The notes under the pieces are model-generated. The model searched no databases. It was not told the origin of the DNA and worked only from the letters and a program-made list of their open reading frames with translations. Below, piece after piece: positions 17,980-25,478 of a stretch of 46,417 nt of DNA. Source of the stretch: an uncultured candidate division WPS-2 bacterium (GTDB lineage Bacteria; Vulcanimicrobiota; Vulcanimicrobiia; Vulcanimicrobiales; Vulcanimicrobiaceae); the NCBI GenBank assembly GCA_937910425.1, contig CALEOJ010000252.1:1-46417 (forward strand), read 5' to 3'. The position numbers and the translations under genes were made by a program. The stretch's first letter is position 1, and the number at the start of each line of letters is the position of its first letter.

Positions 17980-18789
17980 CTACCGGTAGAAGTCGCGTTC
18001 CCAGTTTCGTTGATTGTCCTTGGCGTCACGAATGAAAGGCGATCGCGCGGCGACTTGTAGAAGGACCCAGTTCACGACGTTCGCCGGAAACCTCAGTGGC
18101 CGCACGAAGTCGGCGAACAAGACGACGCGCAGCAGGCCGCTCCGGTTCCAGGCTTCGTGCTCGTACGAGTCGTCGAAGATGAGCGCCTTGCCTTCATCCC
18201 AGTGGCAGACTCGCGATCCGACGCGGATCGCCACGTTATCGCTGGTGTCCGGGACGATGAGGCCGAGATGGAGCCGTAACAGCCCGTTATAGGGGCCGCG
18301 ATGCGGTTCCAGGTGCTTCCCGGGTTCGAAGATCGAAAACATCGCCGTCGAGAGGCCCGGAATTTCTCGGAGGATGCGCCAAGTTTGCGGACACTGCTCG
18401 ATGTTGCGCTTTGCCCTGATGCCGACTCCGATCAGAAGGAACGACTTCCAACCACGGTCGCCCGTCACCAAGCCGATGTCCGGCAAGATATCCTGAAAGC
18501 ACGGCAGCTCGTCCTTGCGCGTCAGGACACGATCGAGCTCGGCCCGAATCGTGCGCCAGTCGCGCTCGAGCCTCGGCACCCACGCAAAAGCCGCCGTGTC
18601 GAGCACCGCGTCGTTGGAGACTTTCGAACACGTGCGATTGAGCCGTTCGACGAAGGGAAGAATGCGAACGAGAAGACGAGCCGTTAGCGTCAGCTTGGTC
18701 TTCCCTTGAGAAAGCCAGAGGTACTCGTCCGTGCGGGACGCCACGTCTATTTGATCGATCACGCCCGCTTCGAGGCCCGACTCGACCAT
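17980..18789 (-). CDS. Aspartyl/asparaginyl beta-hydroxylase domain protein
   Basis: FEPGKHLEPHRGPYNGLLRLHLGLIVP...VCHWDEGKALIFDDSYEHEAWNRSGLLRVVLFADFVRP (2-His Fe and Arg motifs). Confidence 0.9.
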   Translation of the reverse strand: MVESGLEAGVIDQIDVASRTDEYLWLSQGKTKLTLTARLLVRILPFVERLNRTCSKVSNDAVLDTAAFAWVPRLERDWRTIRAELDRVLTRKDELPCFQDILPDIGLVTGDRGWKSFLLIGVGIRAKRNIEQCPQTWRILREIPGLSTAMFSIFEPGKHLEPHRGPYNGLLRLHLGLIVPDTSDNVAIRVGSRVCHWDEGKALIFDDSYEHEAWNRSGLLRVVLFADFVRPLRFPANVVNWVLLQVAARSPFIRDAKDNQRNWERDFYR

Positions 18790-18811: not shown

Positions 18812-19279
18812 TCAGCGTTCGCGCTTCTGGTCTTTCACGGCGCGGGCGACATCCCCACGCGAAAGAATGGTGCCGGCTTCCTCGAGCCCTGAGCGGATTG
18901 CATCCGGCGTCGGGGGACAACCATGGACGAAGATCGCCGCCTCCAACTCGACTCCGGCTCCCTCGCCCGCTTCGGGCGCACCTGCCCAAGGGCCGACGCC
19001 TGCGGCGCAGTCGCCGATTGCCACGACCACCCGGGGAAGGGGGACGGCGTCGACGGTCTGTTCGGCTGCGGCACGCATCGCCACCGTCATCGGACCCGTG
19101 ACGGTGATGACGTCGGCATGCCGCGGTGAGGCGACGATGTCCCAGCCGTCCCGCGTGATATCGTAGTAGGCGTTGTTCAGGGCGTTCATCTCGTGCTCGC
19201 AGCCATTGCAACTTCCGCACACCAGGTGTCGAATACCGAGCGATCCGCGGAAACTCGACTGCGTCATCGGTCGGCACAC
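18812..19279 (-). CDS. Group 4 [NiFe]-hydrogenase-type small subunit (HyfI/NuoB-like)
   Basis: RHLVCGSCNGCEHEMNALNNAYYDITRDGWDIVASPRHADVITVTGP...VVAIGDCAAG...FVHGCPPTPDAI; Cys spacing of NuoB/HycG family. Confidence 0.88.
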   Translation of the reverse strand: MCRPMTQSSFRGSLGIRHLVCGSCNGCEHEMNALNNAYYDITRDGWDIVASPRHADVITVTGPMTVAMRAAAEQTVDAVPLPRVVVAIGDCAAGVGPWAGAPEAGEGAGVELEAAIFVHGCPPTPDAIRSGLEEAGTILSRGDVARAVKDQKRER

Positions 19280-20667
19280 GCATAGCAGAGATTGAAGCTC
19301 TTGTTGACCAATGGAAAATCAGGAACGATGTTGCCGTCCATTGCCGCGGCGACGATCGGCCAGTTGCGATACGAGGCGGAGATGACGTGCAGCCGGCTGA
19401 GGCGGCCTCGATCGTCGACATGGACGGCGACGGTCTCTGCGCCGCGCGGTCCTTCGACGACGCCGATCGCAGCACCGGGCCCGAGGCGCGGCATCTTGGG
19501 CGCGCTTGGCCGCGCGTCGCCAAGCTGCGCGAGCGCCTCGTCGATGGCGCGAAACGAGCCTCGCAGCTCGTCGCGCTTGACGCAGCAGCGCGCGAACGCA
19601 TCTCCACTCGCGGCGGTGGCGGCGTCGACGCGGATTCGTCGATAGGCTCCGTAGGGAGCAAACGCGCGAACGTCGATCTTCCCACCTGACGCGCGACTTG
19701 CCGGACCGACCGCGCCGAAGGCGCGCGCCATCTTGCGGGAAACGACACCGGCGCGTTCCCAGCGGGCAACGACGGACGGGTTGCCAAAGAGCGCCGCGAA
19801 ATAATGTTCGGCGGAACTCGCCAGCACACGAAGAGTCGCGCGGAGTTCCGACGGCTCGCGCAGCGTACTCGGCCCGACGCCACCAGGAACGATCGCGTCG
19901 AAAAGCAGCCGATGCCCGCCTCCGAGCCGGCACGCGCGCATGGCTCGTTCCTTGAGCGCCATCCCCCTGGCGAACCCTGGTCCCCAGCCGGCTCCGGCGG
20001 CGCTGGCGGCCAAGTCCGCAAGGTGATTGTAGACGCGTTCGAGCTCCACTACGACGAGCCGGGCGAGCTCGACACCGGGATCGAGCTCAATGCCGGCGAG
20101 CTGCTCGAGCGCCTGCGCATAGGCCAGCGATCGCGATGCGCTACAGCTGCCGCAGATACGGGCCACACCGGCCGCCGCCTCGAGAGCATCGGTCCCGCAG
20201 AGGTGCCGCTCGACGCCGCGATGCGAATATGAAAGCTGGGCATCGAGATGGACGACCGTTTCGCCGCCGGAGCTGAAGGTGAATCGTCCGGGTTCAATGA
20301 TCCCTGCGTGTACTGGGCCGACGACCATGTGCATGAGCCCGCCACCCGTCGCCAGCAGAGCGTCCGGCATGCGGCCGTCCTGTCCCCGCAACGGGCGTGG
20401 ATCGGGCAGATCGGCGAAGCGCACGTTCCACTCGTCGCGCATTTCGCGCTCGTCCCACGAAAAAAGCGGAAACGTCGCCGAGAATGCCGTCGCCGCTCGA
20501 CCGTCAGCATGCGGGCGCTCGAGCGCAAAGGCTCCCCGCGCCCCGAGGAAAAGATAGTGCACCGCATCTGAAGACGCGTACGCGCCCAGCGGAACGCCGC
20601 TTTCACATTCGGCGCTCACGCCGCGCTCGAATGCGCTCACGTCGAGCTCGTGCGACGGTCCGCTCAT
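19264..20667 (-). CDS. Group 4 [NiFe]-hydrogenase-type large subunit (HyfG/HycE-like), atypical motifs
   Basis: HRGVERHLCGTDALEAAAGVARICGSCSASRSLAYAQALEQLAG and terminal VNKSFNLCYACADR*. Confidence 0.85.
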   Translation of the reverse strand: MSGPSHELDVSAFERGVSAECESGVPLGAYASSDAVHYLFLGARGAFALERPHADGRAATAFSATFPLFSWDEREMRDEWNVRFADLPDPRPLRGQDGRMPDALLATGGGLMHMVVGPVHAGIIEPGRFTFSSGGETVVHLDAQLSYSHRGVERHLCGTDALEAAAGVARICGSCSASRSLAYAQALEQLAGIELDPGVELARLVVVELERVYNHLADLAASAAGAGWGPGFARGMALKERAMRACRLGGGHRLLFDAIVPGGVGPSTLREPSELRATLRVLASSAEHYFAALFGNPSVVARWERAGVVSRKMARAFGAVGPASRASGGKIDVRAFAPYGAYRRIRVDAATAASGDAFARCCVKRDELRGSFRAIDEALAQLGDARPSAPKMPRLGPGAAIGVVEGPRGAETVAVHVDDRGRLSRLHVISASYRNWPIVAAAMDGNIVPDFPLVNKSFNLCYACADR

Positions 20668-22130
20668 GGCGCGGACTCGAGTGTTGCGGCAATGCTCGCC
20701 AGCGATGCTCCGAGCGAGGTCCACGGGACGACGGCGATGCTCAGAGCTCCGATGACCGCGACGGCGATCGCGCCGCTAGCGACCGACGCGAGGAGCGCCG
20801 CGATCCGTTGCTCGGCCGTCCGCGGTATCTCGTGAGCGGGCGAGCTCTCGACCCCCTGCGCCTTCGGAGTACCGGATTCGATCTCGATCGCGCTACGCGC
20901 TATCGCGGCAAAGGCCAGGGCTATGCCGGTGAGGCCCAGCCCCAAGGGAACCCATTGATGCGCCGCGATCCCGGCGAAAACCAAGAGCAGCTCGCTCACG
21001 AACAGTCCGAACGGTGGCATCCCGGAAAGCGCGACGAGCGCCGCGAGCAACAGCCGGCCCGAGCCGCCGCGCTGCCACAGGCCGCGCAATTTCCCCAGTG
21101 TCGTCGTGCTGAAGTCGCGCTGCACCATTCCGGCAGCGAAGAATGCGGCGGACTTCGCAAAAGCATGCCCGACGACGTGCAGCAGAGCCGCGAGAAACCC
21201 GAGCGAGCCGCCGAAGCCCAGCGCCAGCGCCACGATACCCGCGTGCTCGACGGTCGAGTACGCGAGCATTCGCTTCAAGTCTCGTTGCACCAACATGAGA
21301 GCACCGGCAACGATCACCGATGCAGCGCCCAGCCACACCAGGATCTGGTGAAGCAGCGGGGAGACGCCCAGCGCCGCCCCAACCTCGAGCGTGCGCATGA
21401 TGGCGTAGAGCGCGCACGAGACGAGGACTCCAGAGAGAAGCGCGCTGATCGGCGCCGGGGCCTTCGAATGCGCGTCGGGTAGCCATGCGTGCATGGGGAA
21501 AAGCCCCGCTTTGGTGGCGAACCCGACGAGCATCAGGACCGTTGCCAACTGCGCCAGTGATGGAGCGGCCGGCGTGGTATGGCCGGCGATCGCGGTCCAC
21601 GATAGCGTCAGCCGCGGATCGATCCCGGCCGCGATCGCGACGTGCGCCAATGCGACGATCCCGAGCAGCGCGAAGCCGATCCCGACGCTACAGAGCACGA
21701 GATACTTCCAAGCAGCTTCCAGCGCGGTCGCCTCGCCGCTGAAGCCGACGAGGAAGGCCGTCGCGAGCGTGGTGGCCGAGATCCCCAGCCACAGCGCCGC
21801 AAAGTTATCCGCAAGTACGACAAGCAGCATCGCACTCCAGAAAGCGCCGAGGAGAACGAAATACACCGACTTGCGAGACCAGATCGCACGCCCGACCCCC
21901 CAGTCGGGCGCGAACGTTCCGGTCGAGAACGCCGTGGCCAGGAAACCGAGCACGGAAACGATTGCGGTAAACGTGCCCGAAAGACCGTCGATCGTTCCAG
22001 CGAGCGAAAGCGGTAGCGCAGCTGCGACCGCTGCAAGGACGACACGCGCAAACCGCCGCGCCTCGCGATTCCGAAACGCGATCGTCAGAATCGCCGACAA
22101 GAGCGGTGCGGCGATCACCCACGCCATCAT
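20664..22130 (-). CDS. HyfF/NuoN-M-like proton-conducting membrane subunit
   Basis: Proton-antiporter family: GFATKAGLFPMHAWLPDAHSKAPAPISALLSGVLV. Confidence 0.88.
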   Translation of the reverse strand: MMAWVIAAPLLSAILTIAFRNREARRFARVVLAAVAAALPLSLAGTIDGLSGTFTAIVSVLGFLATAFSTGTFAPDWGVGRAIWSRKSVYFVLLGAFWSAMLLVVLADNFAALWLGISATTLATAFLVGFSGEATALEAAWKYLVLCSVGIGFALLGIVALAHVAIAAGIDPRLTLSWTAIAGHTTPAAPSLAQLATVLMLVGFATKAGLFPMHAWLPDAHSKAPAPISALLSGVLVSCALYAIMRTLEVGAALGVSPLLHQILVWLGAASVIVAGALMLVQRDLKRMLAYSTVEHAGIVALALGFGGSLGFLAALLHVVGHAFAKSAAFFAAGMVQRDFSTTTLGKLRGLWQRGGSGRLLLAALVALSGMPPFGLFVSELLLVFAGIAAHQWVPLGLGLTGIALAFAAIARSAIEIESGTPKAQGVESSPAHEIPRTAEQRIAALLASVASGAIAVAVIGALSIAVVPWTSLGASLASIAATLESAP

Positions 22131-22732
22131 CCGCGCAGTCTCCGCAGGGATTCGACATCAAGCAGAGGATCGTGCACGACGATTGCGCGCACGAGGGCTA
22201 GGCCGATGACCGTCGCAACGAGAGCATCGAACGCCGTACCAAGCTCGATCGGTTCCGGCAGACCCGGTGCCAACATCGATGCGGCAAGTCCGATCCCGAT
22301 GCTGAGCACGAGTAAGCCGACCATGTGCGCGAGCAGGTTCCTATGGATGATGAGCATGCCGACTCCGCACAAGACGACGAAAGCGACGAGGTCGGCCATC
22401 GGGACCGTCGCCACCGCCGGGAGACGCGTCACGATCTTGGCGAGCACCGCGAACGCGATCACGATCAGAAGACGGCCGGGAGCGGAAATCGAAGGCCGCA
22501 GATCTGCCGCAGCCGGATTCGCGCGCACGAACAGCACGATTCCGAGGGGCGCTAGAACGACTTTGAGCACCGTCGCAACGGCGAACAGCGCAAAGGTTGC
22601 GGGCGAAGCGAGAGCGGCGGTGATTCCCAGCGCACCAACCATCACGGAAAGAACGACGTAGGCGATCAAGACCTGGAACGTGCGACCGTTCACGAGCAAG
22701 ACGGTACCGGCGACGAGGACGACAACTGCCAT
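22127..22732 (-). CDS. HyfE-like hydrogenase membrane subunit
   Basis: 202-codon polytopic protein between HyfC- and HyfF-like genes; LLIIHRNLLAHMVGLLVLSIGIGLAASML; position and size match HyfE. Confidence 0.75.
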   Translation of the reverse strand: MAVVVLVAGTVLLVNGRTFQVLIAYVVLSVMVGALGITAALASPATFALFAVATVLKVVLAPLGIVLFVRANPAAADLRPSISAPGRLLIVIAFAVLAKIVTRLPAVATVPMADLVAFVVLCGVGMLIIHRNLLAHMVGLLVLSIGIGLAASMLAPGLPEPIELGTAFDALVATVIGLALVRAIVVHDPLLDVESLRRLRG

Positions 22733-22734
22733 CG

Positions 22735-23613
22735 TCACGCGAGCCCTCCCAGCACGCGCAGACCGATGCTCGCCACAGCGAAGATAAACGCCGTGCCGAA
22801 GAGTTGCGGAACCTCGAAGAGCCGCAACTTCGCGAACAGCGTTTCGACGACGGTGACCGCGCCGATGAGGCCGAGGATCCACGGCAGATGGCGCCAGCCC
22901 TCGGCACCGCCCGGAAGCAGCATCGCCGCCAGCACGAGGAAGCAAAGCTGACGGATGTAACCGGCGTACTGGAGCATGGCGAGTTGCCATCCGGAGTATT
23001 CCAGAACCAGCCCCTCATGAATCATCGTGAGCTCATAGTGCGTTTCTTGGTTGTCGATGGGAACGCGCGCGGTCTCCGCAAGGAGCACCAAGAAGAAAGC
23101 CGCAAACGCAAGCATTCCGGCGAGTCCGAACGGCGCATCCAGCAAGAACGATAGGTGCGTTCCCCGGCCTAAGACGGCTCCTCCGAGGAGCGCGAGGAGC
23201 AGCGCAGGCTCGACGAGGCTGCCGAACGCCATCTCGCGGCTGGCTGCCATCCCGGCGAAGGAACTTCGCGTGTCGAGTGCAGCTAGTGCGAGAGCGAACC
23301 GCCCCAGCCCCAAGAGGAAGGCCAACGCGATGATGTCGACGATGCTCCCCATGGCATTCGGCGCGACGATCGGCAGCACGGAAGCGAAGGTAACGGCGAC
23401 GCCGAGCACGATCCCCGGAGCGATCAGCGGTATCGGTGAGACGCCGTACGGGAGCAGCGCCTCTTTGTTCAAGAGCTTCGCCAGATCGCGATACGGTTGC
23501 AGCGGAGACGGCCCGGGACGGCCTTGCAAGTTCGCGCGCAGCCGTTTCATCACTCCCTGTACCAAGGGGGCGAGCACGGCGATCGATACGACCTGAGCGA
23601 GAAGCTGCATCAT
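22735..23613 (-). CDS. HyfC/NuoH-like membrane subunit
   Basis: MKRLRANLQGRPGPSPLQPYRDLAKLLNKEAL; ETARVPIDNQETHYELTMIHEGLVLEYSG. Confidence 0.92.
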   Translation of the reverse strand: MMQLLAQVVSIAVLAPLVQGVMKRLRANLQGRPGPSPLQPYRDLAKLLNKEALLPYGVSPIPLIAPGIVLGVAVTFASVLPIVAPNAMGSIVDIIALAFLLGLGRFALALAALDTRSSFAGMAASREMAFGSLVEPALLLALLGGAVLGRGTHLSFLLDAPFGLAGMLAFAAFFLVLLAETARVPIDNQETHYELTMIHEGLVLEYSGWQLAMLQYAGYIRQLCFLVLAAMLLPGGAEGWRHLPWILGLIGAVTVVETLFAKLRLFEVPQLFGTAFIFAVASIGLRVLGGLA

Positions 23614-25478
23614 CGAGCGAGCGCGACCGTGACGATCAACGCGGCTAGAGCATACGCGAGGTACATTCGCAGACTCCCGCTCTGGACCAGGCGGAACCGG
23701 CGCGCGAACCGCAGGACCACCGCCGCAAAGTGTCGCGCTCCTTCGTCGACGACATAGCGGCTTTCGGTCCGATACGAGATCCGCTCCGGGAGCCATCGGG
23801 ACGACCCCATCTGGTAGCGCCGCTGGCGCTCGGGAAGCAGGACGAAGGCGAAAATCGTGCGGAGCGGCTTGGAGAACGCAGTGGCCGTATATTGCGCCGC
23901 CACGGTGACCGGCGATCCGCAGGTCCAGGTCGGCACGAAGCGTATGCGTCGCCGGGCCGCCATGGCGACGCAGAGGAGAGCACCGGCGAGTGGCAGCAGC
24001 ACCAGTGTTGCCGGCAGCACGGGCAACGCCTGCGGAGTAATCACGACCAGGCCGAGTGTTTTTCCGACGACGCCGGCCAATGGAACGACCGCAAGCGTCG
24101 GGACGACGCCGAGCACGATGCAGAGCCCGGCGAGAAACGCGACTGCCATCGTCGACGCGTCGAACCGCTCGCGAACCGCGGGACGCGCGTTGAGACGTCG
24201 CGACTCGCCGAGGAAAACGACTCCGAAGACCTTGACGAAACAGGCGGCGGCGAGCCCTCCGGTCAGCGCGAGCCCCGCGATCGCTGCAACGAACACGAAC
24301 GTCACCGTCGGGCCGCCGCCGGAGACGCCGCCGACGAGGCTCTGAAAGGTGAGCCACTCTGAGGCGAATCCGTTGAACGGCGGCAGACCGGTGATTGCGA
24401 CGCAGCCGATGAGAAAGAACGGCGCGGTCCAAACGAGCTCGCCCCACAGACCACCCAGACGCTCGAGATCGACCGTGCCTTCCACATCGTTGACGGTACC
24501 GGCACCCAAGAACAGCAGCGCCTTGAACAACCCATGGTTGATCGTGTGGAACAGCGCCGCGACGAGCGCCAATCCCGCGAGAGCGGAGCTTCCGGCGGAC
24601 CGAGCCAGGAGAGCGACGCCGATGCCGATCACGATAATGCCCACGTTCTCTACCGAGTGGTATGCGAGCAGCCGTTTGAGGTCGTGATCGACGAGCGCGT
24701 ACAGGACGCCGCCGACAGCGCTGATGGTGCCGATCGCAACGAGCGCAAGGCCCCACCAGGACGGCCCCGGGGCGGCGAGCTCCAGCGTGACCACGAGTAA
24801 GCCGTACAGGGCGACCTTGAGCATCGCGCCCGAGAGCATGGCGGAGGCACTCGCCGGCGCAACCGGATGAGCACGCGGCAACCAGAAGTGCAACGGCATC
24901 AACCCCGCTTTGGAGCCGAAACCGAGCAACGCGAAAACGAAGACCGTGTCGCGCAATCCGGGCGAAAGTCGGGTCGCGTGCGCCGCGATTCCGGCAAATG
25001 ACGTATCCCCGGCCGCCAGCGCGAGAAGCGTGAGGGCGACGAGCACGCAGAGCGCACCGGTCTGCGCGACGACCAGGTACGTGAAGGTGGCGCGGCGGAC
25101 GCCGCGGCGTTCGTGGTGCGCGGCGACCAAGAAGGCGGAGACCAGCGACATCGTTTCCCACGCGAAGAAGAAGAGTGCGGCGCTCCGGGCTACAAGAACC
25201 AAGAGCATCGCGGCCGTGAATAAAGCGATCAGCAGTGGCTCGCCCGGCGAGCCCCGGCGCATGCACCACAGGGCCACCGCCGTGGTGAGAATCGCCAGAA
25301 GCGCGCAGAACGGCGCGCTCAACGGGGTTACGGCGAATCTCAGCGCCAGTGCCGGAACGGTGCCTTCGAGCGTGTAAGCCGGGATCTCGGAGCCGTGCGA
25401 ACGAAAGCCGATCACCGCGACAGCGGCCGCGAGAATCGCGACGGAGCACATCGCGACGACGCCGGCACTGCGAAGCAT
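23610..25478 (-). CDS. HyfB/NuoL-like proton-conducting membrane subunit
   Basis: FAWETMSLVSAFLV, GFGSKAGLMPLHFWLPRAHPVAPASASAMLSGAMLKVALYG, LFHTINHGLFKALLFLGAG. Confidence 0.92.
   Translation of the reverse strand: MLRSAGVVAMCSVAILAAAVAVIGFRSHGSEIPAYTLEGTVPALALRFAVTPLSAPFCALLAILTTAVALWCMRRGSPGEPLLIALFTAAMLLVLVARSAALFFFAWETMSLVSAFLVAAHHERRGVRRATFTYLVVAQTGALCVLVALTLLALAAGDTSFAGIAAHATRLSPGLRDTVFVFALLGFGSKAGLMPLHFWLPRAHPVAPASASAMLSGAMLKVALYGLLVVTLELAAPGPSWWGLALVAIGTISAVGGVLYALVDHDLKRLLAYHSVENVGIIVIGIGVALLARSAGSSALAGLALVAALFHTINHGLFKALLFLGAGTVNDVEGTVDLERLGGLWGELVWTAPFFLIGCVAITGLPPFNGFASEWLTFQSLVGGVSGGGPTVTFVFVAAIAGLALTGGLAAACFVKVFGVVFLGESRRLNARPAVRERFDASTMAVAFLAGLCIVLGVVPTLAVVPLAGVVGKTLGLVVITPQALPVLPATLVLLPLAGALLCVAMAARRRIRFVPTWTCGSPVTVAAQYTATAFSKPLRTIFAFVLLPERQRRYQMGSSRWLPERISYRTESRYVVDEGARHFAAVVLRFARRFRLVQSGSLRMYLAYALAALIVTVALAR

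What the first reader, a model, noticed from the sequence alone, without database searches (positions are those of the whole stretch)
19264..20667. Hyf-like large subunit with altered L1/L2 motifs and no C-terminal extension
All four potential Ni ligands are kept (RICGSC and CYAC). However, L1 has RxCGxCxxxR instead of the usual terminal His, and L2 reads NLCYACADR instead of DPCxxCxxH/R. The protein ends immediately after ADR, where a maturation protease would normally cut. This suggests a protease-independent maturation route, or a cofactor-binding site repurposed from H2 chemistry.
Basis: partly seen in the sequence, partly recalled or inferred. Interest (0 to 1): 0.65.

Follow-up and report, generated by a model that had tools for sequence, protein, structure and literature searches.

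The report
Hydrogenase-like subunit without its cofactor makers
A soil bacterium carries a proton-pump-type membrane complex whose 'hydrogenase' subunit keeps the four cysteines that normally hold nickel and iron, but the genome, like most of its relatives, lacks the machinery that builds that metal centre, so the cysteines probably hold something else.

Summary
Window 19264-20667(-) encodes a 467-aa HycE/HyfG-type large subunit with RICGSCSASR and NLCYACADR, ending exactly where HycE is processed. It lies in a six-gene operon (HyfB-C-E-F-G-I, no HyfH). The missing C-terminal extension is not novel: about 90 homologues end the same way, and several accepted NiFe-hydrogenase groups naturally lack it. 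The more informative fact lies elsewhere in the genome. The window's genome has no HypC, HypD, HypE or HycI, and no other NiFe hydrogenase. In 34 genomes with the four-cysteine subunit, HypD and HypE occur only in the 13 that also have a separate canonical NiFe hydrogenase. Twenty-one lack both, including a closed Conexibacter chromosome. Within the window's own family, 15 of 19 carriers that are at least 90% complete lack HypD. The quartet is nonetheless invariant (36/36), under purifying selection (dN/dS 0.14-0.25), and is all-or-none across the wider family (39 with four, 52 with none, 2 partial). The tree puts the protein with cysteine-free Ehr-type complexes, not with HycE, HyfG or MbhL. 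Most likely it is an ion-pumping, Ehr-clade redox complex whose cysteine quartet binds a simple, Hyp-independent metal centre. The centre, electron partner and reaction are inferred, not shown.

The parts
19264..20667 (-). HyfG/HycE-like large subunit, 467 aa: N-terminal NuoC-like domain fused to NuoD/NiFe-hydrogenase-like domain
   Evidence: AlphaFold pLDDT 92; nearest solved fold E. coli HycE 7z0s_E, TM 0.91
20131..20160 (-). L1 site RICGSCSASR, residues 170-179 (C172, C175; Arg where hydrogenases have His)
19267..19293 (-). L2 site NLCYACADR, residues 459-467 (C461, C464), at the very C-terminus
18812..19267 (-). HyfI/MbhJ-like small subunit with complete hydrogenase-type proximal-cluster cysteines (GSCNGC, GDC, GCPP); start ATG overlaps the HyfG stop
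20664..22130 (-). HyfF-like antiporter-type membrane subunit, 488 aa; TM5 glutamate replaced by Ser118
22127..22732 (-). HyfE-like membrane subunit
22735..23613 (-). HyfC/HycD/NuoH-like membrane subunit
23610..25478 (-). HyfB-like antiporter-type membrane subunit, 622 aa, TM5 Glu kept

Best explanation
The operon encodes a membrane-bound, ion-translocating redox complex of the hydrogenase/complex I superfamily (HyfB, C, E, F membrane arm; HyfG-HyfI redox module; no HyfH). Its large subunit belongs to the Ehr-type clade but keeps all four cysteines of the former NiFe site. SHOWN: the quartet is invariant and under selection; the protein is made without the C-terminal extension; the carrier genome and most relatives lack the Hyp machinery and the protease; Hyp presence tracks other, canonical hydrogenases. 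INFERRED: the four cysteines hold a centre that can be loaded without Hyp proteins (a rubredoxin-like Fe or Zn ion, or a small Fe-S cluster) next to the proximal [4Fe-4S] cluster of HyfI. Electrons enter at HyfI, perhaps from ferredoxin, and pass to an acceptor other than protons, driving ion pumping through the HyfB/HyfF arm. I put about 0.85 on 'not a NiFe(CN)2CO hydrogenase' and about 0.6 on 'quartet binds another metal centre'.
For: Own genome (92% complete): no HypD, HypC, HypE over cut-off or HycI; its only PF00374 match is this subunit. Of 34 four-Cys genomes, HypD and HypE occur in the same 13, all with a high-scoring canonical NiFe large subunit; 21 lack both, including closed Conexibacter S30A1 (L021 = G074) and seven Eremiobacterota of at least 95% completeness (Fisher P 1.5e-8 for HypD against canonical enzyme). 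In the window's family, 15 of 19 carriers of at least 90% completeness lack HypD, with no association between carrying the subunit and HypD (P 0.72). All four Cys invariant in 36 of 36 four-Cys homologues whereas the other cysteines are not; CxxC persists even where the motif is otherwise TICAAC. The quartet is all-or-none: 39 CCCC, 52 none, 2 partial. dN/dS 0.14-0.25. DP before Cys3, including the canopy Asp D529 of HycE (PMC9474812), is replaced in all 36. Joint four-Cys plus zero-Cys clade apart from HycE, HyfG and MbhL (SH-aLRT 99, trait columns removed). Precedent: a Cys quartet in HycF binds a single metal, tentatively iron (PMC9474812).
Against: No biochemistry was found for this subgroup. 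Glu125 (counterpart of HycE E193, a proton relay) and Arg408 (canopy R478) are kept, as an H2 enzyme would need. Related Desulfosporosinus proteins keep the L1 His and live in genomes that have Hyp proteins, so those could still be NiFe enzymes; literature files Desulfosporosinus and Desulfitobacterium complexes under HydDB group 4f. An unknown Hyp-independent assembly route cannot be excluded.
Confidence: 0.6

Rival explanations
1. A genuine NiFe hydrogenase (HydDB group 4f-like) that matures without a C-terminal extension, using Hyp proteins missed in draft genomes or an unknown assembly route.
For: Four Cys, the proton-relay Glu and the canopy Arg are kept. Small subunit is closest to MbhJ. 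Extension-less hydrogenases are known (PMC7294309). Some four-Cys genomes have Hyp proteins.
Against: 21 of 34 four-Cys genomes lack HypD and HypE, including a closed chromosome; Hyp tracks other hydrogenases. The DP motif is lost in all and the L1 His in most. The tree groups it with cysteine-free Ehr.
Confidence: 0.12
2. The quartet is a non-redox structural site (Zn) or a disulfide pair that keeps the chamber closed; catalysis, if any, happens at the proximal cluster as proposed for MBS.
For: In MBS the proximal [4Fe-4S] cluster does the chemistry and the two remaining Cys of MbsL are not needed (PMC7684303). Proximal-cluster Cys are complete here.
Against: Nothing directly. Unlike MBS, all four Cys are invariant here, and the small-subunit motif is of MBH type, not shortened.
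Confidence: 0.22
3. A decaying remnant of a hydrogenase with no function.
For: Loss of the extension, of the His and DP residues, of HyfH, and of the HyfF TM5 Glu in Eremiobacterota.
Against: dN/dS 0.14-0.25, intact operon in many loci, invariant Cys across several phyla.
Confidence: 0.04

Closest known systems
[quoted passage not shown]
   Same: Same joint clade, same Hyf-type operon genes, no C-terminal extension, PDFPLxNKSFxL ending.
   Different: Ehr complexes are defined by lack of the NiFe-binding residues (PMC6349859, PMC10284858); here all four Cys are invariant.
E. coli formate hydrogenlyase / hydrogenase-4 (HycE, HyfG)
   Same: Best solved match by sequence and fold; fused NuoC-NuoD-like subunit; CxxC + CxxC.
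   Different: No 32-aa extension, no HyfH, no adjacent formate dehydrogenase, DP to NL, His to Arg, no Hyp genes, separate clade.
MBH (MbhL/MbhJ) and MBS (MbsL/MbsJ) of Pyrococcus
   Same: MBH-type small subunit; modular membrane arm; MBS shows that NiFe can be lost while the complex stays active (PMC7684303).
   Different: MBS keeps two of the four Cys and has a shortened small-subunit motif; here four Cys and the MBH-type motif are kept.
HydDB group 4f 'putative formate-coupled' hydrogenases
   Same: Six-gene complexes in Desulfosporosinus and Desulfitobacterium are so classed in the literature.
   Different: HydDB could not be run here. No formate dehydrogenase was found in the flanks examined. 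One survey discarded its group 4f candidates after motif and other checks (PMC9431212).

Membership tests
Canonical group 4 [NiFe]-hydrogenase | Four cysteines in two CxxC motifs | tested here: met
Canonical group 4 [NiFe]-hydrogenase | L1 RxCGxCxxxH and L2 DPCxxCxxH/R in full | tested here: not met
   Arg for His; NL for DP
Canonical group 4 [NiFe]-hydrogenase | Hyp maturation machinery in the genome | tested here: not met
   HypC, HypD, HypE and HycI absent
Canonical group 4 [NiFe]-hydrogenase | C-terminal extension (not universal: 2b, 2d, 4c, 4e, 4g lack it) | tested here: not met
Canonical group 4 [NiFe]-hydrogenase | NiFe(CN)2CO centre and H2 activity | not testable with these tools
   needs biochemistry
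Ehr complex | Clade with Ehr-type large subunits, apart from HycE/HyfG/MbhL | tested here: met
   SH-aLRT 99
Ehr complex | NiFe-ligand cysteines absent | tested here: not met
   four Cys kept
Formate hydrogenlyase / Hyf | HyfH-type 2x[4Fe-4S] subunit and linked formate dehydrogenase | tested here: not met
   No HyfH-like ORF in the operon or in the nearest relatives. Molybdopterin oxidoreductases exist elsewhere in the genome but are not linked.
Complex I | No Cys quartet; His in the beta1-beta2 loop instead of Glu | tested here: not met
   Glu125 and Cys quartet present; the NuoD-like L099 differs
HydDB group 4f | HydDB assignment | not testable with these tools
   database not available

The most novel reading that the evidence does not exclude
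A lineage of energy-converting complexes in several bacterial phyla uses the old NiFe cysteine quartet to hold a different, Hyp-independent redox centre. It would be a living intermediate between NiFe hydrogenases and cysteine-free Ehr or complex I, with a new reaction at the top of an ion pump.
Probability: 0.4. Interest if true: 0.75.

Novelty: new variant of a known kind. Interest (0 to 1): 0.52.

Why it matters
Four cysteines in the hydrogenase pattern are routinely read as evidence for H2 metabolism. If genomes without any Hyp machinery keep this quartet under strong selection, that annotation rule fails for a whole subgroup spread over several phyla. It would also give a testable intermediate for the proposed stepwise loss of the NiFe site on the way to MBS and complex I: cofactor machinery lost first, cysteines later.

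Tried and rejected
Sequencing artefact at the stop: rejected, since homologues end identically and HyfI overlaps the stop. Missing C-terminal extension as the novelty: rejected, known for several groups. A local partner: no conserved neighbour was recognised between window and relatives; Desulfosporosinus loci have Mo/W aldehyde oxidoreductases nearby, and no such link was seen in Eremiobacterota. Association with ferredoxin-reducing 2-oxoacid oxidoreductases or molybdopterin oxidoreductases: uninformative, since nearly every genome has them. Weak HypE matches in Hyp-less genomes (E about 1e-10, far below cut-off) also occur in all 14 control genomes and were read as superfamily background. 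Cys geometry could not be measured because model coordinates were not released. Literature searches found no paper describing a four-Cys, Hyp-less subgroup.

Full report
WHAT IS THERE. Window 19264-20667 (-) encodes a 467-aa protein. Pfam finds Complex1_49kDa (4.5e-33) and NiFeSe_Hases (3.8e-06). The best solved relatives are E. coli HycE (7z0s_E, 3.6e-43) and Pyrococcus MbhL. An AlphaFold2 model from 44 window and locus sequences has pLDDT 92.2 and pTM 0.92, and its nearest PDB fold is HycE (TM 0.91). The operon on the minus strand is HyfB, HyfC, HyfE, HyfF, HyfG, HyfI. No HyfH-like double [4Fe-4S] subunit is present here or in the close relatives; L028 and the second complex of L041 do have one. 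HyfI keeps the complete proximal-cluster cysteines in the hydrogenase spacing and is closest to MbhJ.

THE OBSERVATION. L1 is RICGSCSASR and L2 is NLCYACADR, followed by the stop; the HyfI ATG overlaps that stop. E. coli HycE and HyfG carry a further 32 residues after the same Arg. All terminated full-length homologues aligned to the end stop at this position, so this is a family trait and not an artefact.

THE EXTENSION IS NOT THE NEWS. According to PMC7294309, H2-sensing (2b, 2d), CODH-linked (4c), Ech (4e) and 4g hydrogenases naturally lack the extension and seem to use the normal Hyp machinery.

THE MATURATION MACHINERY IS MISSING. The window's genome has no HypD, HypC, HypE over cut-off or HycI protease. 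Its only NiFe-hydrogenase-family match is this subunit. Among 34 genomes carrying the four-Cys subunit (one of them, L028, with three of the four), HypD and HypE occur in the same 13. Those 13 all have a separate canonical NiFe large subunit. The other 21 have neither HypD nor HypE; one of them (G078) has a partial hydrogenase and a HycI. Fisher P for HypD against canonical enzyme is 1.5e-8. One of the 21 is a closed chromosome, Conexibacter sp. S30A1 (L021/G074), and seven are Eremiobacterota genomes of at least 95% completeness. In a second sample, 19 of 57 genomes of the window's family with at least 90% completeness carry the subunit and only 4 of these 19 have HypD, against 6 of 38 without it (P 0.72). 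Carrying the quartet therefore does not depend on Hyp.

THE CYSTEINES ARE STILL UNDER SELECTION. In 36 four-Cys homologues C172, C175, C461 and C464 are invariant, while the protein's other cysteines are present in 8-39%. Even where L1 has become TICAACSVSR (L135) the CxxC remains. Over the whole alignment the quartet is all-or-none: 39 with four (three of them canonical), 52 with none, and two partial. The locus search used no cysteine-motif peptide from either site. dN/dS against three close relatives is 0.25, 0.15 and 0.14. By contrast D-P before Cys3 is replaced in all 36, and the L1 His is Arg, Asn or Ser in 25 of 36. The cysteine-free relatives keep that His in 45 of 52, so it is not tied to the metal site.

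WHERE IT SITS. With the motif columns removed, four-Cys and zero-Cys subunits form one clade apart from HycE, HyfG and MbhL (SH-aLRT 99). The four-Cys label needs two changes, against 22.6 in shuffles (quick tree; several inner forks are unresolved, so monophyly of the four-Cys set is not claimed). Four-Cys members come from Vulcanimicrobiota/Eremiobacterota, Bacillota (Desulfosporosinus), Actinomycetota, Acidobacteriota and Eiseniibacteriota.

MECHANISM. Known: in MBS two of four Cys are lost and the proximal cluster does the chemistry; [quoted passage not shown] Here the order appears different: cofactor machinery gone, cysteines kept. The most economical reading is that the quartet holds a centre loaded without Hyp proteins. 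Single-metal Cys quartets exist in this superfamily (HycF, tentatively iron; PMC9474812). Electron source and acceptor are unknown. The genome encodes a POR_N-type 2-oxoacid oxidoreductase and molybdopterin oxidoreductases, but none is linked to the operon. These steps are inference.

LIMITS. The window's genome is a 92% complete draft. HydDB could not be run. Desulfosporosinus proteins, which keep the L1 His and coexist with Hyp, may still be real NiFe enzymes.

Noticed in passing
window 20664-22130 (-), HyfF Ser118 (about 21777-21779): The TM5 glutamate of antiporter-type subunits, kept in E. coli HyfF, Desulfosporosinus, Conexibacter and Ehr relatives, is Ser, Ala or Thr in all four-Cys Eremiobacterota HyfF examined, while window HyfB keeps it. 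One of the two putative pump subunits may be uncoupled.
   Followed up: partly
L041 2682-9828 and 10076-17314: Desulfosporosinus sp. I2 carries two four-Cys complexes in tandem; the second has a HyfH-like ferredoxin domain fused to its small subunit.
   Followed up: partly
L015 12459-14252; L014 13533-16259: Desulfosporosinus copies lie next to aldehyde:ferredoxin oxidoreductase or xanthine-dehydrogenase-type molybdoenzymes, molybdopterin-biosynthesis genes and a sigma-54 activator: possible electron donors there.
   Followed up: partly
L028 and L068: Partial quartets: Ozemobacteraceae L028 has three Cys (CYAD), Archaeoglobaceae L068 has one.
   Followed up: no
G000:C314:8090-9763 (own genome): A molybdopterin oxidoreductase frame of about 1118 aa with one in-frame TGA, repeated in many relatives, looks like a selenocysteine formate dehydrogenase.
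   Followed up: no
window 17980-18789 (-): Next to HyfI lies an aspartyl/asparaginyl beta-hydroxylase-like gene close to OlsC, below the family cut-off. In L001 the same gene lies on the other side of the operon, so it is not linked.
   Followed up: partly
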